From a virus, in the IMG/VR virus record IMGVR_UViG_3300044654_000030, positions 1-58,965 of that record: a stretch of 58,965 bases of DNA. One strand, written 5' to 3'. Positions 5,286-58,965 of the stretch are shown piece by piece. How positions within the stretch are numbered: the stretch's first letter is position 1; every line of letters begins with the position of its first letter. The notes beneath the pieces were generated by a model. It was not told the DNA's origin. It saw only the letters and a program-made list of their open reading frames with translations, and did not search any database. The position numbers and the translations under genes were made by a program.

Positions 5286-6956
5286 TCAGAAGACGAGCCA
5301 GGCGCGCTCGCAGTTGGTTCGAGTGGTTGAACATCCCGTTGATGGAACTGCGAGCGCGCCGTCGTCCCCCAAGCCCAAGTCCAGACACAAGTTCAGGTGA
5401 TGGCCGTCCCCCAGGAACCGGGCGTCGAGCCAGTCCAGGATGTGCCGTCGCTGGTCCCACGTCTGGGCAGCCTGGTTCTCCAGCCCGGCACGGACCTGCG
5501 CGGCGTGCCGGGCCAGGGCCTCCGCCTTCGCGTCGATCGCGTCGTAGCCGGCCAGCAGCCCCTGGAGCTGCGCGATGCGGGCCGCGTGGCCGTCGCGCTC
5601 GCGATTCGCCTGGGCGACCTCGCGGAGGATCATGTCGCGCAGCTCGGGGTCGTCCTGCCTGCCGAAGCTCTCCATCATGTTCTGCGCCCGGCGCTCCGCG
5701 TCCTGCTTCGCCCGCTCGGCCGCGGCCAGGCTCTCGCGATGCAGGGCCTCGCCGGGCTTGTCCCGCGTCATCCGGGCGATCTCCTGCTCGATCAGCCCCG
5801 CGGTGGTGAGCACCCGGACGACCTCGGCCCAGGCGACGTCGCGGATCTCGTCGTCGTAGACGGCCCGGACGGGGCAGGCGGGCGTGCCCGGGGTGCGGAG
5901 GTGTCGGTTGCAGCGATAGCAGGGCCGGTACGCGGGCCCGTCGCCGGCGCGACGATCGCGCGTGTAGGAGACCCACATCGGGCCGCGGCAGGCCATGCAG
6001 TAGATCCGCCCCCGCAGGAAGGTGGAGGCGCGGGCGGCGCGGCCGGCGGCGTGCCCGATGCGGGCGTGATGGCGGGCGGACATCGCGGCGACGGCCCGGT
6101 CCCAGGTCGCGGCGTCCACCAGGGCCTCGGTCTTGGCGTCGTGGGCGACGGTCCAGCGCTCCCGGGGCAGCTTGCGGTACTTCTTCCGACCGATCGTCTC
6201 GTACCGGAGGTGGGTGCTGACGCCCTTGTAGACCTCGTCCCGGACGAGGGCGTGGATGATGCCCGTGGTCCAGCGGGCCCGGCGCGACCGCGGCGGCAGG
6301 CCGCGCCGGGCGCCCGGGGTCGGGACCTGGTGCCGGTTCAGCTCATCGGCGATCTCCGTCAGGGTCCAGCCCTGGTTGGCGAGCCAGTCGTAGATCCGGC
6401 GGACCCAGGGGGCGATCCGGGGGTCCGCGACGCGGGTCCGGGTCTTCTTGTCCCAGGTCAGGCCGTACCGCCCGCCGCCTTCGCCGACGAGCTGCCCGGC
6501 GTCGCGGATCTCCTTCTTGACGCGCATCGTCCGTTCCTGGATCAGCTCCCACTCGACCTCATGGGCCCACCCCCGGATGGCGAGCATCACCTTGCCGGTC
6601 GAGTTGTCCTCGATCGGGACCAGGACGCAATGGACCCGGCAACCCCGGCGGCGGAACTCCTCGACGAGGACCTGGAGATCGGTCATGTCGCGCGCCAAGC
6701 GTTCGGTGTTGTGGACGATCACGCCGCCGATGGCCCCGACGCGGGCCAGCTCGCGGATACGCCCCAGCCCGGGGCGGATGTCGGCGGTCTTCATGCCGGA
6801 GAAGCGCTCGAAGACGACGAGATCGGGCGGGATCTCCAGGCCGCGGGCGTCGGCGAACTGGCGGATCGACGCGAGCTGGGTGTGCAGGGAATCGTCGGCG
6901 TCGCCGTGCTCATCCGAGACGCGGCAATAGGCGGCAAAGGGCTTGGTCTGGCTCAT
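5286..6956 (-). CDS. int: Large serine recombinase (phage integrase)
   Basis: 556 residues; catalyses site-specific integration and excision of the phage genome. The N-terminal resolvase domain carries catalytic Ser14 in AAYCRVSDE and an active-site Arg region around HNTERLARD. A recombinase domain follows (residues about 160-310, including RRIYDWLANQGWTLTEIADELN), then a Cys4 Zn ribbon (IYCMAC ... CYRC ... CP, about residues 317-360), then a long coiled-coil of about 110 residues, as in other large serine integrases. The start has a strong GGAGGAGG and its own promoter. The last 25 codons coincide with a 60-bp imperfect palindrome that resembles an attachment site. Confidence 0.95.
   Translation of the reverse strand: MSQTKPFAAYCRVSDEHGDADDSLHTQLASIRQFADARGLEIPPDLVVFERFSGMKTADIRPGLGRIRELARVGAIGGVIVHNTERLARDMTDLQVLVEEFRRRGCRVHCVLVPIEDNSTGKVMLAIRGWAHEVEWELIQERTMRVKKEIRDAGQLVGEGGGRYGLTWDKKTRTRVADPRIAPWVRRIYDWLANQGWTLTEIADELNRHQVPTPGARRGLPPRSRRARWTTGIIHALVRDEVYKGVSTHLRYETIGRKKYRKLPRERWTVAHDAKTEALVDAATWDRAVAAMSARHHARIGHAAGRAARASTFLRGRIYCMACRGPMWVSYTRDRRAGDGPAYRPCYRCNRHLRTPGTPACPVRAVYDDEIRDVAWAEVVRVLTTAGLIEQEIARMTRDKPGEALHRESLAAAERAKQDAERRAQNMMESFGRQDDPELRDMILREVAQANRERDGHAARIAQLQGLLAGYDAIDAKAEALARHAAQVRAGLENQAAQTWDQRRHILDWLDARFLGDGHHLNLCLDLGLGDDGALAVPSTGCSTTRTNCERAWLVF
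5301..5360. repeat. 60-bp palindrome, candidate attP, inside the 3' end of the integrase gene
   Basis: A perfect 15-bp inverted repeat, GGCGCGCTCGCAGTT at 5301-5315 and its complement at 5346-5360, is separated by 30 bp. Extended pairing gives about 22 of 30 positions per half. Length, symmetry and position beside a large serine integrase match the layout of attP sites. No T-tract follows on either strand, arguing against a terminator. Confidence 0.5.
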
Positions 6957-9908: not shown

Positions 9909-11006
9909 TTAGGTGAGCTTCTTGAAGGCGACCTGAAATTTCGGATTAAACACACAGTTGCCATAAAAATCCACAGAGAACCGCCAGCTCTTGGTGGCGA
10001 TGTCGAGGTCGGGGCCCTCGGGGACGAAGACCTGCGCCTGCTGCGACCTGAGCTCCATCATGTCCACGTTGAAGCCGTAGCCGGTCGCGGGCGTGATCCC
10101 GTACTCCCAGGTGATATCAACACCATCTTGATTGATGATATCAGAGAACCCCAGCGCGATCAGCGGGCTCTTGTCGGCCTGGCGCTCGACGACGATCCGC
10201 TCCTTGGTCCGGTAGAGGGCCTTGTACGAGCGGAACATCTCGTCGTCGCACATGATGACGTCGAGCATGCCCTTCTGGCTCTTCGACTTCTTGGCCTTCA
10301 CGATGCCGAAGCTGATGGCCTCGACGCTGTTGTTGGCCCAGGTGTTGTTGGGGCTGGCGCCGCCGGGGAACAGGCTGTCGCCGTAGTCAACGACGATGGG
10401 GCTCCAGAAGTCGAACTGCGCGTCGCCGCGGCCGTTGGGCCACGCGGGCAGGCTGCCCGGGTTCCAGGTGCCGCCGTAGAAGCCGGGGACGCAGGAGATG
10501 CCGGCGTAGGTCGCCGTCGGGGCGCCGGCGCCGTTGCCGGCGACCGCGTTGGCCGACAGGAACGACTCGATCCCGTGCATCCGCTTGGAGTTCGCGGGAT
10601 CATATCCATTGGTGTAGAATTCTTCCCCGAACGCATCTTCCATATCATCAATCAAGTCTTTACTGATATCGTCGTAAAGCTTGATGATAGCTTCAGTTGA
10701 ACGATTCTGCAAATACTCACCCTTGGTCATGGAGTCCGTGGTCGAGTACCCGCGCCAGTCGAGGAAGGCGGTCTTGTACCGGTCCTTCCGGCTGAACTCC
10801 AGCGTGTCGCCGTCGGCGAACGGGGTCAGCTTGACCCGCTTGTACTTGACCTTCCAGTCCATGCCGATGCCGGACCAGTTGAAGCTGATGCGCCCCTTCG
10901 ACTTGAGCAGGGCGGTCAGCTTACGATTGCGTAAAATATTAATTTCACGCTCTTTGATGTAATTCCGGATGGTGGAATTCACGATCCGGGACCAGGGCGC
11001 CGGCAT
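9909..11006 (-). CDS. Major capsid protein
   Basis: 365 residues; forms the icosahedral shell, presumably of HK97 fold. Evidence: a basic helical N-arm (IRNYIKEREINILRNRKLTALLK), a central P-domain-like region with MTKGEYLQNRSTEAIIKLYDDISKDLIDDMEDAFGEEFY, and a beta-rich C-terminus ending FGNCVFNPKFQVAFKKLT-like. The scaffold gene lies immediately upstream, and a near-perfect Shine-Dalgarno GGAGGTGA (strongest in the window) fits very high expression. Several segments (about 10,120-10,145, 10,600-10,740 and 10,920-10,985) use AT-rich codons, unlike neighbours. Confidence 0.88.
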   Translation of the reverse strand: MPAPWSRIVNSTIRNYIKEREINILRNRKLTALLKSKGRISFNWSGIGMDWKVKYKRVKLTPFADGDTLEFSRKDRYKTAFLDWRGYSTTDSMTKGEYLQNRSTEAIIKLYDDISKDLIDDMEDAFGEEFYTNGYDPANSKRMHGIESFLSANAVAGNGAGAPTATYAGISCVPGFYGGTWNPGSLPAWPNGRGDAQFDFWSPIVVDYGDSLFPGGASPNNTWANNSVEAISFGIVKAKKSKSQKGMLDVIMCDDEMFRSYKALYRTKERIVVERQADKSPLIALGFSDIINQDGVDITWEYGITPATGYGFNVDMMELRSQQAQVFVPEGPDLDIATKSWRFSVDFYGNCVFNPKFQVAFKKLT

Positions 11007-12615: not shown

Positions 12616-12747
12616 GCCGCGACCATCGCGCCGAGAAACTCAGCGCGCCCGGACGTTTCGGCCCGATGATGCCCAGGCACGCGAGCCCGGCGAGAGGCGA
12701 TCGCGACCGCGATCGGCCGGGGATGGTGCGTGCCACGGGGGCAGGCG

Positions 12748-13374
12748 ATGAGCAAGGCGCAGTGGTATCCGACGCCGGAGATCGAGCGGGCGTACGCCAA
12801 CTATTCCCACGGGCTCAGGAGCCGGGTCCGGCAGCTCATGGAGGCCCTCGGGCTGACCGACGAGGAGCTCAGCCTCAAGATGGAGCGGACCGACTCCTAT
12901 ATCCGCCAGCTCCTGAGGGAGGGATTCATCCCGAGGCGGGGCGCCATCCAGGCGATGGCGCGGGTCCTGGGCGTGACGGAGGAGTACCTGCGGTTGGGCA
13001 CGATTTCCGCCGCCCCGGGGGCGGCCGGCGACGTCGAGGGCGGGGACGATGATCAGCACGACGAGGAGGACGAGGACGTGACGCCGAATCATGAGACCAC
13101 CCCGAAGGACGGGGCCGTGCTCCCGGCGACGACGACGGCCGTGCCGACCGAGCGGCCCTGCGGGGCCGAGCGGGCGGCCGCGGACGATGGGCACCTCCGG
13201 GTGCCCCCGGCGCTGGTCCAGTACGCCTACCGGTCGGGGCTCCCGCTCCCCCATGCGGACGCCCTGCTCCTGATCTGGGAGAATGCCCTGGAGACGACCG
13301 CGTTGACCAAGCGACGCGAGCCGACGGCGGAGGACTGGGGGAAATTCCACGCGGCCTTCAAGGATTTCCTGTGA
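12748..13374 (+). CDS. XRE/Cro-CI-type transcriptional regulator
   Basis: 208 residues from ATG 12748. An N-terminal helix-turn-helix (residues about 28-82: LMEALGLTDEELSLKMERTDSYIRQ, then AIQAMARVLGVTEEYL) has the XRE pattern. An acidic Asp/Glu/His-rich linker follows, then a helical C-terminal domain ending AEDWGKFHAAFKDFL. It could be the lysogeny repressor or an early regulator: it lies at the head of the early block near the capsid/early divergent promoters and is not far from the integrase. No LexA-type Ser-Lys protease domain is visible. An extended start at 12730 exists but lacks a ribosome site. Confidence 0.75.
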   Translation: MSKAQWYPTPEIERAYANYSHGLRSRVRQLMEALGLTDEELSLKMERTDSYIRQLLREGFIPRRGAIQAMARVLGVTEEYLRLGTISAAPGAAGDVEGGDDDQHDEEDEDVTPNHETTPKDGAVLPATTTAVPTERPCGAERAAADDGHLRVPPALVQYAYRSGLPLPHADALLLIWENALETTALTKRREPTAEDWGKFHAAFKDFL

Positions 13375-14922: not shown

Positions 14923-15310
14923 AGACCCGGAGCTCCTCTGGGCCCGCTACCCCGCGGCCCTCACCCGAGTCTTCCGGGCCGAGGAGATCGCCGCCGGGGG
15001 CGAGCGTCCGGGGGAGCTCCGGGTCCACGTCTTCGACTGGCCCGACGGCCTGCGGATGATCATCAGCCGCGAGGACGTGGGGACCGGGCGGGCCGTGCTG
15101 CACGTCAGCGCCTCGTTCGAGCCCGGGACCCCTCTCTTCCACGACATGATGAACCAGCCCGACCCGCTCTCCAGCCTCCTGGAGCTCGTCCCCGTCCGCT
15201 TCCGGGAGCTCAGCGGGGACGACCGCCCGCTCCTCATGGCGGCCATCGACCTCAACGCGATGACCCCGCACTGGGTCATGCTCCGCGACGAGCCCGCCCC
15301 CGATGCCTGA
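14900..15310 (+). CDS. Hypothetical protein, 136 aa
   Basis: Starts at ATG 14900 inside the end of the Cys-rich gene. Alternating strands (ELRVHVFDWPDGLRMIIS, AVLHVSASFE) and a helix (LLELVPVRFRELSGDDRPLLMAAIDLN). It appears to be a small alpha/beta domain. No recognised function. The in-frame extension to 14867 lacks a ribosome site. Confidence 0.65.
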   Translation: MSLPFHPEDPELLWARYPAALTRVFRAEEIAAGGERPGELRVHVFDWPDGLRMIISREDVGTGRAVLHVSASFEPGTPLFHDMMNQPDPLSSLLELVPVRFRELSGDDRPLLMAAIDLNAMTPHWVMLRDEPAPDA

Positions 15311-15527
15311 GACGCCCGGGGAGTGGCTGCTGCGGGTCGAGGCGCCGCACTTCGTCGCCGGGGCGATCTTCCGGCGGACGCCGGCGCGGGGCTGGACCTG
15401 CGTCCGCGCGGCCCCCATCCTCGACTGGATGACGGGGAAGGCCCTCATCTCCGTGAAGCCGTACCTGGACCGCAAGGGGTGGGGGCAGACCTGGTCCCCG
15501 CCCCCCGGCGGCACGGGTGGCGTTTAG
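15303..15527 (+). CDS. Conserved small phage protein, APILxWMxGK family
   Basis: 74 residues, overlaps the preceding gene by 8 nt. The pattern EAPHFVAGAIFRR ... APILDWMTGK ... VKPYLDRKGW matches a frequent small phage protein with HFVAG and a conserved APILRWxxGK motif. Function unknown. Pro/Gly-rich C-terminus. Confidence 0.65.
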   Translation: MPETPGEWLLRVEAPHFVAGAIFRRTPARGWTCVRAAPILDWMTGKALISVKPYLDRKGWGQTWSPPPGGTGGV

Positions 15528-15535
15528 GCGTGAAC

Positions 15536-15736
15536 ATGGAAATCATCATCCGGCTCCAGGTGTCGAAGCCCTGCACGATCCTCCCCGGGGAGCGGTTCGA
15601 GTTCCGCGCCCGCCCGATGGCCCACCAGGATGGGGGCGAGGCGGCGCACCTGTACCTCGCGTTCCTCGCCTCGGTCTCGCAGATCTCCGGGCGGCCGATC
15701 GTCATCGACCTCGTCGAGCCGCCGGACCGGGGCTGA
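15536..15736 (+). CDS. Hypothetical protein, 66 aa
   Basis: Short alpha/beta protein beginning MEIIIRLQVSKP, with RFEFRARPMAHQDGG and a final strand PIVIDLVEPPDRG. Only a weak ribosome site precedes it. Last gene before a change in base composition at about 15740. Confidence 0.55.
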   Translation: MEIIIRLQVSKPCTILPGERFEFRARPMAHQDGGEAAHLYLAFLASVSQISGRPIVIDLVEPPDRG

Positions 15737-16173
15737 AGGCCGAGTGTGTAGCGGCAAAAATCGGGGAGGGGAAGATTAGTAACCCGTGCGCGCGATTGGG
15801 GGCCGGAGGGGGTCGCCGCAAGTCCAGGTAGGGCTTTGGGTTACGTTGGACACTACCGGTCGAAGACGTGTCCAGCTTGCCCAGATTACCCAGATTAACG
15901 ACGAATCGCCTCCGCCTAGCGCCCGTCCAGGCATGGACGCCTGCCCACCTATCCGCCTGCATACCTGATCGCCTACCCATCTGATCATCAGCTCACTGCT
16001 CCCAGCACTCTAGGGAACCGCGGGCGCGTGCGCCCGGGCGTGTTCCTCTATGGCACGCGGGACGGCGGGGGAGTGTGGCTTTTTCGCCACGCCAGTCCCG
16101 CACGGTCAGGCGTGGCGTATGATGGGTGTAGAGGCGAGAGAGAGCAACGACAGGCACACCTGAGGAGCGACCG
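15737..16173 (+). other. Gene-free interval, 437 bp, with repeats and a promoter
   Basis: No convincing gene. Lower GC than its surroundings. It contains an inverted repeat TGGACAC/GTGTCCA (15847-15853 and 15868-15874), a tandem 9-bp repeat CCCAGATTA x2 (15880-15897), several short CTGATC/GATCAG-like elements near 15964-15990, and the first of three related promoter-leader cassettes (16080-16173). It marks the left border of an island of different character. Confidence 0.6.
16080..16173 (+). promoter_or_regulatory. Promoter-leader cassette, copy 1
   Basis: CTTTTTCGCCACGC is followed by a perfect 9-bp inverted repeat CGCCACGCC (16085-16093)/GGCGTGGCG (16109-16117) that abuts the -10-like TATGAT (16118-16123). 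The leader ends in CACACCTGAGGAGCGACCG before the ATG at 16174. Shared segments recur before the next two genes. No clear -35, which suggests an activator or an extended -10 promoter. Confidence 0.6.
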
Positions 16174-16473
16174 ATGGAGTATCCGTACACGCTTTACGAG
16201 ACTTACCACGGTGGCATCGTGGAGCACGGTGGCATCGTGGAGATCGAAAACTTCCCGACGCTCGGGGAGGCGATCGACAACGTGACCGGCTACGGCGGTT
16301 GGTGGGAGGAGGATGAGGAGCGGTCCCGCGGGCAAGTCGGCTGGATTACGGGCCCCGGTGGGCGCGTCGAGGCGACGTTCTTCGAGCGCGGCCCCGGGCG
16401 GGATCTCGTCGTCACGCTGGCGAACGGCGAGACCACCGTCTACCCGATGCCGGTCGAGTACGTGACGGACTGA
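16174..16473 (+). CDS. Hypothetical island protein A, 99 aa
   Basis: Acidic, aromatic-rich protein with an internal duplication GGIVEHGGIVEI (residues about 14-25), followed by ENFPTLGEAIDNVTGYGGWWEEDEE and beta-rich VGWITGPGGRVEATFFERGPGRDLVVTLANGETTVYPMPVEYV. No known family. It has its own promoter cassette and is followed by a 17-bp hairpin. Codon use is less G/C-extreme than in flanking phage genes. Confidence 0.7.
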   Translation: MEYPYTLYETYHGGIVEHGGIVEIENFPTLGEAIDNVTGYGGWWEEDEERSRGQVGWITGPGGRVEATFFERGPGRDLVVTLANGETTVYPMPVEYVTD

Positions 16474-16479
16474 CCACAT

Positions 16480-16529
16480 CCCGGTTGTGTGTGTCGAAAA
16501 TTCGCAACGCGACGACACACACAACCGGG
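16480..16529. terminator. 17-bp perfect inverted repeat
   Basis: CCCGGTTGTGTGTGTCG (16480-16496) pairs perfectly with 16513-16529 around a 16-nt loop. It lies 6 nt after the stop of island gene A and just before the -10 region of cassette 2, so it can act as a terminator and/or as the operator of the next promoter. Its right arm is a variant of sequence present in cassette 3. Confidence 0.65.
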
Positions 16530-16581
16530 AGTGACGTAGAGTCGAGTGACGGGCAAGCGACACACACCTGAGGAGCGAGCG
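16497..16581 (+). promoter_or_regulatory. Promoter-leader cassette, copy 2
   Basis: Shares GCGACGACAC and ACGTA-A-TCG-GTGACGGG blocks with copy 3, and CACACCTGAGGAGCGA before the ATG with copy 1. The -10-like box is near TAGAGT at 16536-16541. The upstream half is fused with the 17-bp inverted repeat. Confidence 0.55.
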
Positions 16582-16851
16582 ATGTACGCCATCGGCACGG
16601 TTGACGCCTACGGGCACGCCATCCCCTGCACGCGCATCGGTTGCCTGGAAACTTGGCGCTTCGGCAAGCGCCAGATCGAGTTGAGCGGGACGCCGGAGCG
16701 CGGTTTTCGGGTCCGAACCTGGCATCAGGTCTGGCCCGACATGCCGGCCTCACTGGAGTTCGACGAGACCACACCTTGGCGCCGGGAAGCGCTGGCGTGG
16801 GTCCGCGCCGAGCTGAAGTTGGCGGTCCGGCTGGCGAACCGGGGCGAGTGA
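16582..16851 (+). CDS. Hypothetical island protein B, 89 aa
   Basis: Start at ATG 16582 behind GAGGAGCGAGCG. Begins MYAIGTVDAYGHAIPCTRIGC, then beta-strands (TWRFGKRQIELSGTPERGFRVRTWHQVW) and an amphipathic C-terminal helix (REALAWVRAELKLAVRLANRGE). Two Cys near the N-terminus. No recognised family. Second of three single-gene units, each with its own promoter cassette. Confidence 0.7.
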   Translation: MYAIGTVDAYGHAIPCTRIGCLETWRFGKRQIELSGTPERGFRVRTWHQVWPDMPASLEFDETTPWRREALAWVRAELKLAVRLANRGE

Positions 16852-16944
16852 TGCTTTTTCGCCACGCGACGACACGCACGACAGAGAACGACGTATATTC
16901 GGGTGACGGGAACGAGAGGCACGCATCCGAAGGGAGAGAGCGAG
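16852..16944 (+). promoter_or_regulatory. Promoter-leader cassette, copy 3
   Basis: Repeats CTTTTTCGCCACGC from copy 1 (at 16854-16867), then GCGACGACACGCACGAC as in copy 2, then -10-like TATATT (16894-16899), GGGTGACGGG and the ribosome site GAAGGGAGAGAG before ATG 16945. Confidence 0.6.
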
Positions 16945-17136
16945 ATGGGTTACGCGCAGGTTCCGATGGTCATTCGTCCGTTCCGGTGGCTGTTCTCGCG
17001 AACTTGGGACCGCGTCCCATGCTTCGGCGACGTGAATCACAAGACGGGCGGCTGGCGCGATCGCGCCGATGAAGCGATCTGCCGGTTGGCGGAGCTGTTC
17101 CCGGATTCGTGGTACGACCAGAACGATCCGTGTTAG
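16945..17136 (+). CDS. Hypothetical island protein C, 63 aa
   Basis: Small, Trp/Arg-rich protein (PFRWLFSRTWDRVPCFGDVNHKTGGWRDRADEAICRLAELFPDSWYDQNDPC) with three Cys. Third unit in the cassette series. No known family. The downstream 17137-17364 interval carries two GC hairpins and the first ACAATGCATTGT palindrome. Confidence 0.65.
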   Translation: MGYAQVPMVIRPFRWLFSRTWDRVPCFGDVNHKTGGWRDRADEAICRLAELFPDSWYDQNDPC

Positions 17137-17146
17137 GGATCACCCC

Positions 17147-17172
17147 GCCCACCTGCCCACCGGCAGGTGGGC
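17147..17172. terminator. 11-bp hairpin after island gene C
   Basis: GCCCACCTGCC (17147-17157) pairs with GGCAGGTGGGC (17162-17172) around a 4-nt loop, 10 nt past the stop codon. No T-tract. A second stem GGCCCGG/CCGGGCC follows at about 17178-17195. Confidence 0.55.
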
Positions 17173-17320
17173 CCACTCCCGGGCCCGGAACGCCGGGCCT
17201 GAGAGCGGGCCCACAAGCCCACCGGATCGGCCGCAACGGCGGTCAATCCCGAGTGCCGACGTGCAACCCCTGATGACAACCCGCCACGCGGCGGGACGGG
17301 GGACGGACCGCCCCGAGGGG

Positions 17321-17338
17321 CCCCAACAATGCATTGTT
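17321..17338. repeat. Palindromic operator-like element, copy 1
   Basis: CCCCAACAATGCATTGTT, 27 bases before the start codon of the 327-aa island gene. The same 18 bases recur after that gene at 18553. Copy 1 is degenerate on its right end (TCGG instead of TGGGG). An autoregulatory binding site is a natural reading. Confidence 0.6.
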
Positions 17339-17364
17339 CGGCGCGACCAGCAAGCGAAGGAGTC

Positions 17365-18348
17365 ATGACCGTGGCAGACGAGATGCAACCCCAACCCGAC
17401 CAGCCGCAACCCGACCAGCCGCAAGGCGCCGACGCCGGGGGCCCGCTCCCGGAAGTCGATGAGGCGACCGCCAAGAAATTGGCGAAGAACGATGAGGCCA
17501 TCGCGAGGATCGTCAACCTGGCGATCGCGACACTTGACCCGCGCGACATGCTCAAGAAGTATGCGAAGCTGGGCAAGGCTGCCGCGGACCATGCGATCTG
17601 GCAGAAGGCGCAGTTTCCATCGTGGGGCGCCGAAGACTTCGACCGGCTCTGCGATCAGATCGCGGATCGGGTCAAGATGCAGGTCGCGATCCAATCGGTT
17701 CGGATCTCGACCTACGTTCGCGTCCATTTCTGGCTTGAGGCGGTCAAGCCGATGGTCCCGGACGCGGACAAGCTGTCTTACTATCAGGTCGTCAATCATT
17801 TCCTCCCGACCCTCTCGTTCAACCCCGTGGACTTGGCGGGCAAGATCAAGGATGGGTGGGTCGATGTGGTGCGCGATCTGGTCGCGCAACAGATCGGCGA
17901 CAACCCGCTCCCCATCAAGGAGCTGAAGGCTATCCTTCAGGACCATGCCGACGCGATGGCCGCGGAGCGCGATGCCCAGAAGGGCCCCGAGAAGCTGGCC
18001 GAAGAGAACCGCAAGAAGTCGGTTCGTAAGGCCACCCGGGAGGAGAACAAGCTGCGCGAGCAGATTACGATGGGGATCGACTCCGCGCTCGGCGGGACCC
18101 TGGAACCGGAGTCGGTGGTCGGCATCCTCCAGAAGGTGGCCGCGGACCGCGGTGTGACGCTCCCCAAGGTGGGGGTTGACCCGCACGCGATGGCGCCGAA
18201 ACAGGTCCCGCAGTTCGTGGCGGCGCTCAAGGCCCGTGGGGACGTCGCTCTGGTCAGGGCCCTGCGCGACCAGCTTGACGCGCTCATCGCCGAACTGGAG
18301 ACTCCGGCCACGACAGGGGACTTGCAAGCCGAGCGGACCGCCGCTTGA
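17365..18348 (+). CDS. Hypothetical island protein D, 327 aa, bracketed by palindromes
   Basis: Start at ATG 17365 behind GAAGGAG; the in-frame ATG at 17329 lies inside the palindrome and is unlikely. Disordered N-terminus with QPQPDQPQPDQPQ repeats, then a long helical region (residues about 30-160, including FWLEAVKPMVPDADKLSYYQVVNHFLPTLSF), a charged Lys/Glu/Arg coiled-coil (about 205-245), and a C-terminal helical part (ALKARGDVALVRALRDQLDALIAELE). No known family. Lower GC and different codon use than its neighbours suggest transfer. Flanking identical palindromes suggest it binds or is regulated through them. Confidence 0.8.
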   Translation: MTVADEMQPQPDQPQPDQPQGADAGGPLPEVDEATAKKLAKNDEAIARIVNLAIATLDPRDMLKKYAKLGKAAADHAIWQKAQFPSWGAEDFDRLCDQIADRVKMQVAIQSVRISTYVRVHFWLEAVKPMVPDADKLSYYQVVNHFLPTLSFNPVDLAGKIKDGWVDVVRDLVAQQIGDNPLPIKELKAILQDHADAMAAERDAQKGPEKLAEENRKKSVRKATREENKLREQITMGIDSALGGTLEPESVVGILQKVAADRGVTLPKVGVDPHAMAPKQVPQFVAALKARGDVALVRALRDQLDALIAELETPATTGDLQAERTAA

Positions 18349-18459
18349 ACGGCCCCCTCGACTCGTCGGCGGACGGCGCGGTCGCGCCGCTCCGCCGACA
18401 CCGATCGGGATGCGGCGGGTCAACCCGGTGCCGACTAGGGACCGGGCGAGCCTGCCCTC

Positions 18460-18490
18460 AAGCCCCTCAGGATCGCTCCTGAGGGGCTTT
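18460..18490 (+). terminator. Intrinsic terminator of island gene D
   Basis: AAGCCCCTCAGG (18460-18471) pairs perfectly with CCTGAGGGGCTT (18478-18489) around a 6-nt loop, followed by TTCG. About 110 nt past the stop of the 327-aa gene. Confidence 0.75.
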
Positions 18491-18552
18491 CGCATGCGCC
18501 CCGACCGTTCACCGGGGAGGCATGCCCCGAGGGCCCCTGAGGGGCGCAGGGG

Positions 18553-18574
18553 CCCCAACAATGCATTGTTGGGG
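18553..18574. repeat. Palindromic operator-like element, copy 2
   Basis: Perfect 22-bp palindrome with core CCAACAATGCATTGTTGG, flanked by GG and C. Shares 18 bases with 17321-17338. It lies after the terminator of the island gene. Confidence 0.65.
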
Positions 18575-18801
18575 CGGGGTTGACCCGCCCCGGTCCCGGG
18601 CCGGTCCGCTCTCGCGAGTGGGCCGGCCCGTCGTCGTTTCCCGCCCCTCCGGCGGGCCCTCGGGCCCGCCGGGCCGATCCGCCCGGGCCCACTCGGGGCA
18701 TCCCCGAGCATGGGCGATCGGCCGTCCTAGGCTGCTCAGTTCGGTCGGCATGTCCCGCATCGGAGCCGTTTGCGGTTCCTGGATGCGGGACATTCCACGC
18801 G

Positions 18802-18833
18802 CCGCGCCCCGATCTTGACCGATCGGGGCGCGG
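18802..18833. terminator. 13-bp perfect stem
   Basis: CCGCGCCCCGATC (18802-18814) pairs with GATCGGGGCGCGG (18821-18833) around the loop TTGACC. The loop is a -35-like hexamer but no -10 follows at proper distance, so a hairpin role is favoured. Confidence 0.5.
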
Positions 18834-18891
18834 CTTGCCGCCGCGGCACGGTGCCGCGCGTGGCGTTCCAGGCTAGGCAAGGAGACTCGGC

Positions 18892-19116
18892 TTGAAACCG
18901 TTCGAGATTCAGGCGGATGAGACGGCCCTCTTGCGGGCCCGCGCCGCCGTGCATCGGGCCCGGGTGGGATTCCGGATGGAGTGCGAGGACCGGGATGGCG
19001 CCCCGGACCCCGCCAACCGGGATTGCTGGGGCACGTTCTGGGTGAACGCCCGTGGGCTCCAAGAGGACTTGGCCGGACTCATCTCCATCCTGAACCGCGA
19101 GTTCGGGGAGGGATGA
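18892..19116 (+). CDS. Hypothetical protein, 74 aa, TTG start
   Basis: TTG at 18892 preceded by AAGGAG at good spacing. Helical N-terminus (DETALLRARAAVHRARVGFRMECEDRDG), a WGTFWVNARGL core and a terminal helix DLAGLISILNREFG. Unknown function. First gene of a long series of small early genes. Confidence 0.6.
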   Translation: MKPFEIQADETALLRARAAVHRARVGFRMECEDRDGAPDPANRDCWGTFWVNARGLQEDLAGLISILNREFGEG

Positions 19117-19161
19117 TCGGACCGCCCCATCCCCATCCCGACCGACGAACGGAGGCTCGAC

Positions 19162-19440
19162 ATGGACCTGAGCCGGATGGACCCCTACGAGGCCGAGTGC
19201 CTCGCGACGGACCAGGTGGTCCGGGAATGGGCGGCGTCGATCGACGCCGCCCACCGGGCCGCCCAGCGGGCCCTCGCCCACCTCAGTCACTTGAGGATGC
19301 GCCGGGCCGAGCTGGAAGCCTGGCGGGAGCTGTGCATCGCCGCGGAGTCGGCGAGCGGACCGTTGAAGGAGCTGGGAGAGCTGCTCCGCCGCGAGACCAA
19401 CGCGATCATCGCGGCGATCATGAAGGAGGCCCAATCATGA
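19162..19440 (+). CDS. Helical hypothetical protein, 92 aa
   Basis: Start supported by GGAGG. Almost entirely alpha-helical and Ala/Glu/Arg-rich (DQVVREWAASIDAAHRAAQRALAHLSHLRMRRAELEAWREL), likely a helical bundle or coiled coil. Overlaps the next gene by ATGA, so translation is coupled. Confidence 0.65.
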   Translation: MDLSRMDPYEAECLATDQVVREWAASIDAAHRAAQRALAHLSHLRMRRAELEAWRELCIAAESASGPLKELGELLRRETNAIIAAIMKEAQS

Positions 19441-19679
19441 CCATCGTCCCCGCCTACGGGCGTGACTACAAGACCCAGGCGGAAGTCCTGGAAGATTTCC
19501 TCGTCAATCGCGACTTCATCATCTCCGACCATTTCTGCCCCTACGACGGCAAGCCGACCAACCTGTCGGACTTGCGGAAGGCGGGCGAGCGGAAGGTGAT
19601 GGTCCGCTACCACGGCCTGCGCAAGATCGTGTTCCTCGCGATCACCGACGACGGGGCCAAGGTCCACCGGCCCCGCTGA
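19437..19679 (+). CDS. Conserved small phage protein (FIISDHFCPYDGKPTN family)
   Basis: 80 residues. The pattern GRDYKTQAEVLEDFLVNRDFIISDHFCPYDGKPTN followed by a short strand domain KVMVRYHGLRKIVFLAI is a very widespread small protein of phages and bacterial accessory regions. Function unknown. Translationally coupled to the preceding gene. Confidence 0.75.
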   Translation: MTIVPAYGRDYKTQAEVLEDFLVNRDFIISDHFCPYDGKPTNLSDLRKAGERKVMVRYHGLRKIVFLAITDDGAKVHRPR

Positions 19680-19703
19680 CGAGTGCCGCAGGGAGGCTCG
19701 GGC

Positions 19704-21245
19704 ATGCCGGTTGCGTCCCCGACCCGTCGCCGTGCGGGCCGGGGACGGTTCGTCCCCACGGCGCAGGAACGCATCATGTTTGAACACCAGGTGGCGATCG
19801 GCCCCGAGTTCTTCCGCAAGTCGATGAACGACTATGCGGAGCCTCACTGGGCCTTCGTGCGAGAGATCATGCAGAATTCGATGGACTGCGGCTCGCGCGT
19901 CATCGACGTGCAAATCCAGGACATCGACATCGACGACGTGGAGCTGACCCGCGTCATCGTCACGAACGACGGCCGCCCGATGGACCGGGCGGAGATCACG
20001 GAGAAGCTGCTCGCGCTCGGGAGCAGCGGCAAGGACTTCCGGGACGGGGCGGTCGGGGGGTTCGGGCGTGCGAAAGAGATCTTGTACTTCGCCCACGCGA
20101 AGTACCAGATCGAGTCCGGGTGCTGGCGGGTCGCCGGGAGCGGCGCCGGCTACGACCTGACCGAGTCCCCGACGAGCATCATCCCCGGGACGCGCAGCAC
20201 GGTCTGGTGGGACGGACACCGCGCCGAGGCCCTGCGCGTGACGTTCCGCCGGTTCGTCGAGCTGGCGGGCCGCCAGTGGGGCGGCACGTTCCGGCTCGAC
20301 GGGGAGGAGCACCGCGGGGGCCTGCCCCTCGGGGCGTTCCGACGCGAGCTGGCCCGCGACGAGGAGACCTGGGCCCGGGTGTACACCTCCAGGGCGCCGG
20401 ATCACTCCGTGGTGGTGCGGGTCAACGGCATCCCGATGTACCGGCGCGTCACGCGGTACTCGGGGTGCGTCACGGTCGAGCTGCTGGGGACGTCGGCCGA
20501 GCGGCTGACGTCCAACCGCGACCGGCTGAAGCATCCGTTCGACGACCAGCTCGACGAGCTGATCGACCAGCTCTCGACCCATCGCAGGAAGGCGCTCCGG
20601 CCGAGCGAGCCGGCCTACCACCGCTTCGGGGGCGGGCTGCTGCGCTGGACCCCGCCCGAGCCGGAGCCGGACGGGCCCGTCGCGGTCCGGGTGGCCCCGG
20701 ACACGGCGGTCAACGGGGCGCTCCACGGGGCGCTCGTGACGACCTGCCCGCACCGGGAGTACGTGCATCGGCCGGAGGACCCGGCCCAGCCGGCGACCCT
20801 CCTCGGGTTCGCCTTCGTGTTGAAGAACGCCCGGCGGCAGGCCGTCCCGGGGTGGCTCGACCCGGCGCGGCCGCGGGCCTTCAGCCCGCACGCCGCGTGG
20901 CTCGCCCGAGCCTGGGCGGGCGTCCTCCTGGAGCTGCACGGGCTGCACCACATCACGCGGGGTTTCTGCGTCGGCTTCGTCCTGGACGACGAGGCCGACG
21001 CCCAGTACGAGGAGGGTCCGGGCGGCACCCGGACGTTCCTGATCAACCCGGCGAAGCCGGGGAAGCGGGGCCTGATCCGCAAGTTCCGCGTCGCGGACCG
21101 CGACGCGATCGTGGCGATGGCCGCGCACGAGTTCGTGCACGGCGGCATCGGCGAGATGTACCATGACGAGGACTTCGCCAATCGCCTGACGGAGGTCATG
21201 GCGAAGGCGCTGCGCCATCGTCGGCAGTTCCTGCGCCATTTCTGA
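19704..21245 (+). CDS. GHKL (Bergerat-fold) ATPase fused to an HExxH metalloprotease-like domain
   Basis: 513 residues from ATG 19704 (GGGAGG upstream; an earlier in-frame GTG/ATG at 19683 is less likely). N-terminal ATPase: N-box REIMQNSMD with Asn58, ATP-binding VTNDGRPM with Asp89, GSSGK at 106-110 and the lid GGFGRAKE at 118-125, the order found in Hsp90/MutL/histidine-kinase-type folds. A middle domain includes a beta-rich stretch and LTSNRDRLKHPFDDQLDELI, similar to a transducer segment. C-terminal domain: HEFVH at 475-479 and a third potential ligand His487 followed by DEDF, an HExxH-x7-H arrangement as in minigluzincins and YgjP/WLM-type proteases. ATP-driven conformational control of a protease is inferred. 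Nothing in the window identifies a substrate. Confidence 0.8.
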   Translation: MPVASPTRRRAGRGRFVPTAQERIMFEHQVAIGPEFFRKSMNDYAEPHWAFVREIMQNSMDCGSRVIDVQIQDIDIDDVELTRVIVTNDGRPMDRAEITEKLLALGSSGKDFRDGAVGGFGRAKEILYFAHAKYQIESGCWRVAGSGAGYDLTESPTSIIPGTRSTVWWDGHRAEALRVTFRRFVELAGRQWGGTFRLDGEEHRGGLPLGAFRRELARDEETWARVYTSRAPDHSVVVRVNGIPMYRRVTRYSGCVTVELLGTSAERLTSNRDRLKHPFDDQLDELIDQLSTHRRKALRPSEPAYHRFGGGLLRWTPPEPEPDGPVAVRVAPDTAVNGALHGALVTTCPHREYVHRPEDPAQPATLLGFAFVLKNARRQAVPGWLDPARPRAFSPHAAWLARAWAGVLLELHGLHHITRGFCVGFVLDDEADAQYEEGPGGTRTFLINPAKPGKRGLIRKFRVADRDAIVAMAAHEFVHGGIGEMYHDEDFANRLTEVMAKALRHRRQFLRHF

Positions 21246-25915: not shown

Positions 25916-26677
25916 ATGCCGGACAGGACACCAGTGACGTACGCCTATATCCGCATGTCGAAGGCGAGCCAGGTGGGCTCGCCGGACGACCAGCGGGACA
26001 CGATCGGCCGCACGGCGGCGGCCGACGGCCGCTCGGTGGACATCTGGATCACCGACGCGGCGATCAGCGGCAAGGTCCCCCTCCTGAAGCGGGAGGGGGG
26101 CCGCGAGCTCGACGCCCGGCTCAAGAAAGGGGACCACGTCTACATCGCCCGGCTCGACCGGATGTTCCGCCGGGCGAGCGACTGCGCGCTGATCATCGAC
26201 CGCTGGCAGCGGATCGGCGTCCACCTCCATGTGTGCAACCTCATGGGGATGGGCATCGACCTCAGCTCGGCGGTCGGCCGGTTCATCGCGCTGATCCTGG
26301 CGGCGGTGGCCGAGCTGGAGCGGGAGTTCATCGCCGAGCGGACCCGCGACAGCCTGGCCCGCCGCCGCCGCACGGGCGGCGCGTGCGGCCGGTACGCCGG
26401 CTACGGGTGGAAGTGGCGCAAGCTGTGGGACCCCGAGAAGGGTCGCCACGTCAAGACCAAGGTGCGCAACGAGGAGGAGCGCGCCATCATGAGGGAGATC
26501 GTCAAGTGGCGGGCCGAGGGCCACAGCTTCGACGAGATCTCCCAGCATCTCACGTACACCCTGAAGGTGTTGACGTGGGAGGGCAAGGAATGGACGCTGA
26601 AACGGTGCCAGCGGGCCTACGTGGCGGAGCTGAAGTTGCAGCTCGCCGAGGCCCGCCGGGGCGACCACGAGGCATAA
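25916..26677 (+). CDS. Serine recombinase, resolvase/invertase type
   Basis: 253 residues from ATG 25916 (GGAGGG upstream). N-terminal catalytic domain with Ser15 in YAYIRMSKASQ, DQRDTI, active-site Arg region ARLDRMFRRASD, LAAVAELEREFIAERT helix E, then a short recombinase-type domain with RTGGACGRYAGYGWKWR and an HTH-like segment KWRAEGHSFDEISQHL. Much shorter than the phage integrase and with no Zn ribbon, so closer to resolvases, invertases or small transposon recombinases. It might invert a segment, resolve multimers or belong to a passenger element. Confidence 0.88.
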   Translation: MPDRTPVTYAYIRMSKASQVGSPDDQRDTIGRTAAADGRSVDIWITDAAISGKVPLLKREGGRELDARLKKGDHVYIARLDRMFRRASDCALIIDRWQRIGVHLHVCNLMGMGIDLSSAVGRFIALILAAVAELEREFIAERTRDSLARRRRTGGACGRYAGYGWKWRKLWDPEKGRHVKTKVRNEEERAIMREIVKWRAEGHSFDEISQHLTYTLKVLTWEGKEWTLKRCQRAYVAELKLQLAEARRGDHEA

Positions 26678-57519: not shown

Positions 57520-58965
57520 CTAGCCCAGGCGGATCGAGTCGCCCCAGCCGGGGTCGCGGCCCCGGGCCCGCTCCCGGCGCCGCTTCGCCTCCAGGGCGTC
57601 GGTGGTGTACCCCTTCGCGCGGGGCTTGACGGCGGGCCGGCGGTACGGGAGCCGCGCCATCGCCAGGTAGCGCCAACAATCGATCAGGTGATCGTTCGCC
57701 TTGATCGGCTCGTCGGTGACGATGCCCGAGGGGAGCTTCTTGTAGCTGTACCGCTCGGCCTCCCAGAGGAGCATGGGGCACGAGTCGCGGAACACGACCC
57801 ACTTCGAGCGCCCCTCGGCGTCGAGGTGCAGGCCCGCCCGCACCGCCTCGATCCCGGCCCGGACGTCGTCGCCGCCCGAGGCGGTGGACCAGGTGAACCC
57901 GGTCAGGTGCCCGGGGCGGAAGACCCCGGCCTGCGCCAGGGCGCGGCGGTACTGCTCCTCGTGCGTCACCCCCGAGCCGATCTCGGTGATGCGCCCGGCC
58001 CGCATGTCGATGATCGCCTTGTGGACCACCTGATCGCCTAGTTTTCTCCGCAATTCCTCCGCGAACCGGGCGGCGGTCGCCTGGCGGATGTAGAGCTCGT
58101 CGTACAGGAACACCCGCCCGGCGTGGGGCGAGCCCGGCGGCGGCACGGCGGCGAACAGGACGGCGCAGACCTGCCGGCCCGGGTCCACGGCGATGTAGCG
58201 GGTCCAGTCGCTCGGGATCGGGAAGGCGTCGCACCCGTGCGGCCCGCGGGGCGCGAACTCGGCGTAGACCCGCGTGCCCAGCAGGGCGAAGTCGCCCAGC
58301 ACCCGGATGCGGTACTCGTCGGCCGAGAGCTTGGCCGCGAAGTCCCGCTTCTCCTTCTCCCCCAGGTGCGGGTTCTCCAGCAGGGTCAGGTGGAACTCCC
58401 GCACCGGCGGGTCCTCCACCCCGGCCGCCTCCAGCTCGTGCGCCCGGCAGTGCAGGTCGTACAGGTGCTGCGTCCCCGCCTGGGGCGTCGCCGTCCAATA
58501 AAAGAATCCTTTCCTGTCAATGATCCGGGCGCTGGTCTCGGTGTACCAGGACGGGTGGTCGATCTCCTCGTCGAACCAGGCGGCATCGACGTCGATGCCC
58601 TGGCGGGGCTCGCCCACGCTGGAAAAGAACAGGAGCTCCCAGCCGTTGTGCAGCAAGACCTTGCGCGGGATGCCCGACTTCTTGTCCTCCCACGCGACGC
58701 CCTTGATCAGGTTGGTCGGCAGCAGCGGCGGGGCCGGCTTGGCGCGGGCGGCGTGGGCGGCGTCCCAGGGGTCGTGCGGCCGGAAGGCACGCCAGGCGCC
58801 GTCGGGGCCGCGGATGATCTTGAAGGCGCCGGGCCGCACCAGCTTGCGCCACATCACCTCGCCGCAGTGGTTGAGGTCCTTGCCGCACAGGAGGAACCGG
58901 CCGTGCTCCTTCGGGGCGCGGGGATTCAGGCCGCGGACCGTGCGGGCGCACATCACGGCGCCGAT
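57520..58965 (-). CDS. Terminase large subunit (N-terminus cut by the window edge)
   Basis: The DNA-packaging motor. The frame is open to the last base of the window; the first residues (IGAVMCARTVR) look like the helix that follows a Walker A motif, which must lie just outside. Seen: Walker B-like QGIDVDAAWFDEE at about residues 119-131, coupling motif FYWTATP about 153-158, nuclease-type acidic residues YIAVDPGR (about 255), IIDMRAG (about 315) and DHLIDCWRYL (about 415). The last residues are basic. Nearest neighbour is a small gene and then the portal. Confidence 0.92.
   Translation of the reverse strand: MGAVMCARTVRGLNPRAPKEHGRFLLCGKDLNHCGEVMWRKLVRPGAFKIIRGPDGAWRAFRPHDPWDAAHAARAKPAPPLLPTNLIKGVAWEDKKSGIPRKVLLHNGWELLFFSSVGEPRQGIDVDAAWFDEEIDHPSWYTETSARIIDRKGFFYWTATPQAGTQHLYDLHCRAHELEAAGVEDPPVREFHLTLLENPHLGEKEKRDFAAKLSADEYRIRVLGDFALLGTRVYAEFAPRGPHGCDAFPIPSDWTRYIAVDPGRQVCAVLFAAVPPPGSPHAGRVFLYDELYIRQATAARFAEELRRKLGDQVVHKAIIDMRAGRITEIGSGVTHEEQYRRALAQAGVFRPGHLTGFTWSTASGGDDVRAGIEAVRAGLHLDAEGRSKWVVFRDSCPMLLWEAERYSYKKLPSGIVTDEPIKANDHLIDCWRYLAMARLPYRRPAVKPRAKGYTTDALEAKRRRERARGRDPGWGDSIRLG

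What the first reader, a model, noticed from the sequence alone, without database searches (positions are those of the whole stretch)
15737..18891. Self-contained accessory island with three repeated promoter-leader cassettes and a palindrome-bracketed gene
Four single-gene units (16174, 16582, 16945, 17365) of unknown proteins lie in lower-GC DNA between two hairpin-rich borders. Each of the first three is preceded by a variant of one promoter-leader cassette (shared CTTTTTCGCCACGC, GCGACGACAC and GTGACGGG blocks). This contrasts with the overlapping operons elsewhere and looks like a moron or cargo region expressed independently, for example from the prophage.
Basis: partly seen in the sequence, partly recalled or inferred. 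Interest (0 to 1): 0.75.

Follow-up and report, generated by a model that had tools for sequence, protein, structure and literature searches.

The report
Phage early-gene region with duplicated leaders
In a virus that probably infects planctomycete bacteria, three tiny unknown genes are each preceded by variants of one start-up sequence, next to a virus gene that relatives keep in the same place and that is flanked by a rare mirror-symmetric DNA motif probably used to control it.

Summary
The window is a 59-kb virus record (73% GC, serine integrase, terminase, head genes).

The 'moron island' reading is only partly right. The 327-aa gene belongs to an undescribed family that relatives keep in the same place, divergent from the head module and ahead of the early genes. 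The three small ORFs have no detectable relatives and are absent from that slot in two relatives, so they may be additions. The four genes were never found together elsewhere.

Palindromes with an AATGCATT core also lie at the gene in three of six relatives, with flanks that differ between genomes; in one 8.5-Mb genome the 12-mer occurs only twice, both times there. I read them as operators of the gene's own, winged-helix-like product (inferred). Three relatives lack them, and no fold match supports the protein assignment.

Related phages, but not this one, carry hammerhead ribozymes between early genes.

The parts
16079..16173 (+). Leader cassette 1, before ORF 16174; TATGAT at 16118-16123 (by eye) and CACCTGAGGAGCG
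   Evidence: 3' half 76% over 49 nt like cassette 2; CTTTTTCGCCACGC shared with cassette 3
16174..16473 (+). Orphan ORF 1, 99 aa, acidic (pI 4.2)
   Evidence: no family, no relative found
16474..16581 (+). Leader cassette 2 with an 18-bp perfect inverted repeat (16479-16496/16513-16530); TAGAGT at 16537-16542 (by eye)
   Evidence: best-scoring pair with cassette 3, 63 vs 37 for the best other pair
16582..16851 (+). Orphan ORF 2, 89 aa
   Evidence: no family, no relative found
16852..16944 (+). Leader cassette 3; TATATT at 16894-16899 (by eye)
16945..17136 (+). Orphan ORF 3, 63 aa; the least certain gene
   Evidence: no family; lowest GC3 of 82; not called
17137..17364 (+). Structured leader of the 327-aa gene
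   Evidence: RNA fold z -3.8
17325..17338 (.). Palindrome AACAATGCATTGTT, 27-40 nt before the start
   Evidence: same core at the gene in G001, G433, G431
17365..18348 (+). 327-aa gene of an undescribed phage family, syntenic in relatives
18349..18891 (+). Hairpin-dense trailer, with a terminator-like stem near 18460-18489 that has no U tract by the scan
   Evidence: RNA fold z -10.5; self-complementary stretch; no terminator by consensus scan
18552..18575 (.). 24-nt perfect palindrome GCCCCAACAATGCATTGTTGGGGC

Best explanation
This is the promoter-proximal end of the rightward early region of a temperate phage, probably of planctomycetes. (1) The 327-aa gene is the lineage's own gene: it stands divergent to the head module and ahead of a set of early genes kept in order (shown in part). 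(2) Its product is probably a dimeric DNA-binding regulator that binds the AATGCATT-centred palindromes around its gene and so limits its own expression, with structured leader and trailer shaping translation and mRNA ends (inferred). (3) The three small ORFs are additions, each behind its own variant of one promoter and ribosome-binding leader, so that they are made together and at similar levels early in infection or from the prophage, and act on the host cell (inferred).
For: Relatives of the 327-aa protein: 5 of 45 genomes of one order; in a class sample of 397 the same five; in a phylum sample of 392, G001 and one marginal hit at E 7e-4; viral contig L070. Synteny: next to head genes (head protein 69-76% identical), divergent, 2.4 kb away in L070, 2.3 kb in L072, 5.2 kb in the window (coordinates); window genes 17365, 21521, 25359 and 25934 have matches in the same order in G001. 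Palindromes: ACAATGCATTGT occurs 4 times in 7 whole genomes (about 59 Mb): twice at the gene in G001, once 547 nt upstream of it in G431, once elsewhere in G432; GGGAATGCATTCCC 3 times, all at the gene in G433. CAATGCATTG is rare in 45 genomes (66 sites by my sum), yet 3 of G001's 5 and G431's only one are at the gene. Copies in one genome share flanking bases, those of other genomes differ, the core stays, as expected of recognition sites. Model 2: residues 31-210 mostly at 70-95 pLDDT, helix 114-127, helix 139-149, strands 150-153 and 158-161, compatible with a winged helix. Cassette statistics.
Against: No palindrome of this core near the gene in L070, G429 or either G428 copy, although L070 is 42-44% identical to G001's protein. 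The protein is acidic (pI 5.4) and matches no DNA-binding family and no solved fold convincingly. In G001 and G433 one site lies inside the first codons. No consensus promoter was found in the cassettes and cassettes 1 and 3 resemble each other no better than the best chance pairs. Nothing beyond composition shows that the small ORFs are translated.
Confidence: 0.45

Rival explanations
1. A moron or cargo island: the four units were acquired together and are expressed independently from the prophage.
For: Low GC3, large bounding gaps, repeated leaders; small ORFs absent from the slot in L070 and L054/L072.
Against: The 327-aa gene is syntenic in relatives; no relative holds the four genes together; low GC3 continues into gene 18892.
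Confidence: 0.15
2. The palindromes work as RNA: stems with a UGCA loop in the mRNA that protect ends, stop transcripts or bind an RNA-binding product.
For: In the trailer the second palindrome folds as a stem in the RNA; stem bases differ between genomes while the central TGCA stays; relatives' leaders are structured.
Against: The first window copy is not formed in the predicted local fold; copies in one genome keep the same sequence, and the centre is always self-complementary, which a loop does not need.
Confidence: 0.2
3. The palindromes are ends or targets of a small mobile element that carries the 327-aa gene.
For: They bracket the gene in the window, G001 and G433.
Against: Three or four sites rather than two in G001 and G433, one inside the coding sequence; the gene keeps its place beside the head genes in L070 and L072, which have no palindrome; the protein matches no transposase or recombinase family.
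Confidence: 0.1
4. The cassettes are not promoters but repeated translation-start leaders on one transcript, as may hold for start-associated sequences of Cluster K mycobacteriophages.
For: The strongest likeness of 1 and 2 is next to the start, CACCTGAGGAGCG; no consensus promoter by scan; SAS sites lie by starts.
Against: Likeness of 2 and 3 runs over about 80 nt and covers TAGAGT and TATATT at the same place (hexamers by eye).
Confidence: 0.3

Closest known systems
Start-associated sequences (SAS/ESAS) of Cluster K mycobacteriophages (PMC3203893, passages read)
   Same: One repeated element immediately before the starts of different phage genes, about half of them with a 17-bp inverted repeat upstream whose consensus differs between phages; role unknown.
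   Different: Other sequence (0 matches to GGGATAGGAGCCC with up to 2 mismatches); about 95 nt instead of 13; three copies only; an inverted repeat in one of three, perfect, with a 16-nt spacer.
Prophage operons punctuated by hammerhead ribozymes (PMC3088659, passages read)
   Same: Related phages L054/G429, L070 and G001 carry type II hammerheads between early genes, as the paper describes for prophages.
   Different: Seen in relatives, not in the window; relatives lie in or with planctomycete genomes.
Moron genes of temperate phages (PMC6469090, search listing with abstract start only)
   Same: Independent units of different composition, orphan ORFs.
   Different: The largest gene is a syntenic lineage gene; no joint acquisition of the four genes.
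Autoregulatory DNA-binding proteins with a coiled coil, such as plasmid KfrA (recalled, from no call)
   Same: Winged-helix-like order followed by long helices; palindromic sites by its own gene.
   Different: No matching Pfam family; the supposed DNA-binding part is in the middle of the protein.

Membership tests
Moron/cargo gene | Base composition differs from neighbours | tested here: met
   GC3 ranks 1, 2, 5 and 6 of 82 for the four genes; the next gene ranks 3
Moron/cargo gene | Absent from the same place in close relatives | tested here: inconclusive
   Small ORFs absent in L070 and L054/L072; the 327-aa gene is present there
Moron/cargo gene | Own promoter and terminator | tested here: inconclusive
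   Consensus scan of 15000-20000 found neither; repeated leaders and strong hairpins are present
Moron/cargo gene | Expressed in the lysogen | not testable with these tools
   no transcript data
SAS/ESAS of Cluster K mycobacteriophages | GGGATAGGAGCCC before gene starts | tested here: not met
   0 matches with up to 2 mismatches
SAS/ESAS of Cluster K mycobacteriophages | 17-bp inverted repeat upstream of part of the elements | tested here: inconclusive
   18-bp perfect repeat at cassette 2 only
Type II hammerhead ribozyme, window | CUGANGA and GAA core with three stems | tested here: not met
   0 in the window, strict and relaxed descriptor
Type II hammerhead ribozyme, relatives | CUGANGA and GAA core with three stems | tested here: met
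   found in 8 of 14 sources; 0 in 652 kb of shuffled sequence; 12 of 13 distinct ones have the A15.1-U16.1 pair; Rfam Hammerhead_II scores below its cut-off at several of them
Type II hammerhead ribozyme, relatives | Self-cleavage | not testable with these tools
   needs in-vitro transcription
KfrA-like autoregulator | KfrA N-terminal domain by profile | tested here: not met
   no such match among Pfam hits of the window protein or six relatives
KfrA-like autoregulator | Binds palindromic operator at its own gene | not testable with these tools
   sites present, binding unknown

The most novel reading that the evidence does not exclude
A new family of phage regulators whose operator changes from phage to phage: protein and palindrome flanks co-evolve, so that each phage has a private 12-20-nt operator with an AATGCATT core, virtually absent from the rest of the host genome, framing one autoregulated gene at the start of the early region; in part of the lineage this control is replaced or joined by structured leaders and by hammerhead ribozymes that cut the early transcript gene by gene.
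Probability: 0.25. Interest if true: 0.7.

Novelty: new variant of a known kind. Interest (0 to 1): 0.45.

Why it matters
Little seems to be in print on gene control in planctomycete phages: a search for planctomycetes, prophage and isosphaeraceae gave 4 papers, none of which is by title on phage regulation. If right, the region gives a testable early regulator with a private operator, natural early leaders that could serve as expression parts in this phylum, and a phage lineage in which early genes are separated either by leader cassettes or by hammerhead ribozymes, so that the two solutions can be compared.

Tried and rejected
Rejected: a cargo island as a unit (synteny of the 327-aa gene). 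Rejected: the cassettes as hammerheads; CACCTGAGGAGCG contains CUGAGGA but no partner core was found, and it reads as a ribosome-binding stretch. Rejected: tRNA genes. T-arm-like hairpins in the relatives' leaders are not called tRNAs; the single tRNA-Thr call in L053 lies antisense within the family gene.

Led nowhere: Pfam, PHROGs and NCBIfam for the four proteins; the 327-aa protein in phage and plasmid records and in viral contigs with the window protein or a two-sequence alignment; a three-sequence alignment returned only the contig already held as L070; island DNA against phage records; Rfam at its own cut-offs and permissive. Foldseek and VIA-align of two models: no E below 0.001, best Z 5.5. 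The symR, CC1840, mir and sRNA hits of Rfam were taken as chance without further test; mir-981 in L070 has E 6e-6 but scores below its cut-off. G432's single ACAATGCATTGT lies among ORFs that look like ATP-synthase and glycosyltransferase genes (by eye) and was taken as chance. G014's weak protein hit has no palindrome. A hairpin with a covarying upper stem lies before the gene in five relatives but not in the window, G428b or G431.

Not done: the left border was not folded as a whole; ORF 3 was searched only in family libraries and in the tblastn.
Full report
The window. It is a 58,965-bp virus record, 73% GC. PHROGs profiles name a terminase large subunit (57520-58953), a major head protein (9909-11006), a serine integrase (5286-6956), a second recombinase (25934-26677) and a ribonucleotide reductase (121-2418); a helix-turn-helix regulator lies at 12730-13374. 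It is thus likely a temperate phage. The host group is inferred from relatives: the only genome-contig match of the 327-aa protein lies in a Planctomycetales MAG, and relatives of the head protein (71-77% identical) lie in 2 of 45 genomes of that MAG's order. No tRNA was found in the window.

Check of the observation. All named elements exist at the stated places. The leaders were tested against all others: of 3240 pairs among 81 upstream regions, cassette pairs 2/3 and 1/2 rank first and second (63 and 51; next 37), while pair 1/3 (34) does not stand out. The shared 14-mer is present in cassettes 1 and 3 only. The four genes are among the six lowest in GC3 of 82, but low GC3 runs on into gene 18892, and head gene 9909 is similar. 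The trailer 18349-18891 is a dense series of hairpins (z -10.5).

The small ORFs. ORFs 1 and 2 matched nothing in viral contigs or in 45 genomes of the host order (no positive control, as the tool notes). ORF 3 matched no family. None of the three was found by tblastn in the regions held around relatives of the 327-aa gene or the head gene. In G001 only 679 nt of upstream sequence exist, so its slot could not be judged.

The 327-aa protein. The search for related loci found one relative in genome contigs (40% identity) and none in viral contigs. Profile search found it in 5 of 45 genomes of that order (G001, G433, G429, G428 twice, G431); a class sample of 397 genomes returned the same five. 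Through the head protein I found twelve viral contigs; of these L070 and L072 carry the gene in the stretch held, the other ten (L071, L073-L081) show none there. L071 and several others hold too little sequence on that side to judge. L072's gene is identical in protein to G429's, so these count as one prophage. In L070 and L072 the gene stands divergent from the head genes at 2.4 and 2.3 kb, in the window at 5.2 kb. G001's contig C39 has matches to window genes 17365, 21521, 25359 and 25934 in the same order; its head gene is on another contig, C107, so its full synteny is not shown.

The palindromes. In the window the 14-mer lies 40 nt before the start, and the 24-nt palindrome begins 204 nt after the stop. 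G001 has CAATGCATTG at -619, GGACAATGCATTGTCC at +80 within the coding sequence and GAACAATGCATTGTTC 58 nt after the stop. G433 has CGGGGAATGCATTCCCCG at +91, two more at 249 and 343 nt after the stop, and a copy with one changed base at -485. G431, whose gene ends early, has ACAATGCATTGT at -547. G429, both G428 copies and L070 have none. Over seven whole genomes the 12-mer occurs 4 times, 3 of them here, and the G433 form 3 times, all here. CAATGCATTG occurs 66 times in 45 genomes (my sum of the table, about 320 Mb), about once per 5 Mb; three of G001's five and G431's only one are at this gene. A site so rare elsewhere and so regular here is a private site of this locus in these genomes; a host-wide regulator does not fit. 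That it is read by the gene's own product is inference.

Structure. With four sequences AlphaFold2 gives mean pLDDT 68.7, residues 31-210 mostly above 70 and in part above 90; helices 114-127 and 139-149 followed by strands 150-153 and 158-161 have the order of a winged helix, and long helices follow at 184-242. No library match supports this, so it is a lead only. The protein is acidic.

Leaders in relatives. Upstream regions of G001 and G433 align at 74% over 308 nt. The consensus fold has 92 pairs, 21 with changes on both sides, six of these in one 10-bp helix; with two sequences and pairs chosen by the program this is support, not proof. The window's leader shows no such likeness to them.

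Hammerheads in relatives. A strict type II descriptor finds hammerheads in 8 of 14 sources examined: six in L054 (G429), five in L072 (same prophage), three in L070, two in L042 (seen again in L057), one in L053, one each in L077 and L080; none in the window, L055, L056, L071, L073 or L083; none in 652 kb of shuffled sequence. G428 has a similar motif with CAGATGA, not counted. Of twelve mapped, ten have an ORF start 6-31 nt downstream, nine of them with a ribosome-binding stretch. Rfam's Hammerhead_II scores several of these places, all below its cut-off. Prophage genes flanked by hammerheads were described in 2011 (PMC3088659, passages read), so the kind is known; a search for hammerhead ribozymes with Planctomycetes returned no paper in the held library.

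Conclusion. The region is real and unusual within its phage, but it is best read as the start of the early region: a lineage gene with private, operator-like palindromes, preceded in this phage by three orphan genes with duplicated leaders. The regulatory roles are inferred.

Noticed in passing
L054 (-) 8215, 6349, 5884, 5568, 4558, 3168; L070 (-) 3312, 2923, 1702; L042 (+) 2764, 3102; L053 (-) 2483: Type II hammerhead ribozymes lie in the gaps between early genes of phages related to the window, up to six in one region.
   Followed up: partly
L042:331-679 (+) and L053:3529-3900 (-): Long leader RNA conserved between two relatives, with a T-arm-like hairpin and a hairpin around the ribosome-binding stretch; no Rfam family.
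   Followed up: partly
L070 (-) about 7900; L054 (-) about 10671: Near-identical non-coding stretch AAATTACCCCAGGGTT(A/G)AAAAATTCC between head module and early genes of two relatives; possibly an operator or attachment site.
   Followed up: no
window 15862-16011: G-poor strand (skew -0.35) in the same slot as stronger ones in L070 and L054; could mark an origin or control region.
   Followed up: no
window 19776-21245: 489-aa protein with a sacsin-like N-terminal ATP-binding domain model (E 5e-7, below cut-off), no relative in viral contigs or phage records.
   Followed up: no
L056 8565-10271: In G431 a transposase-like ORF abuts the shortened relative of the 327-aa gene, suggesting disruption by an insertion sequence.
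   Followed up: no
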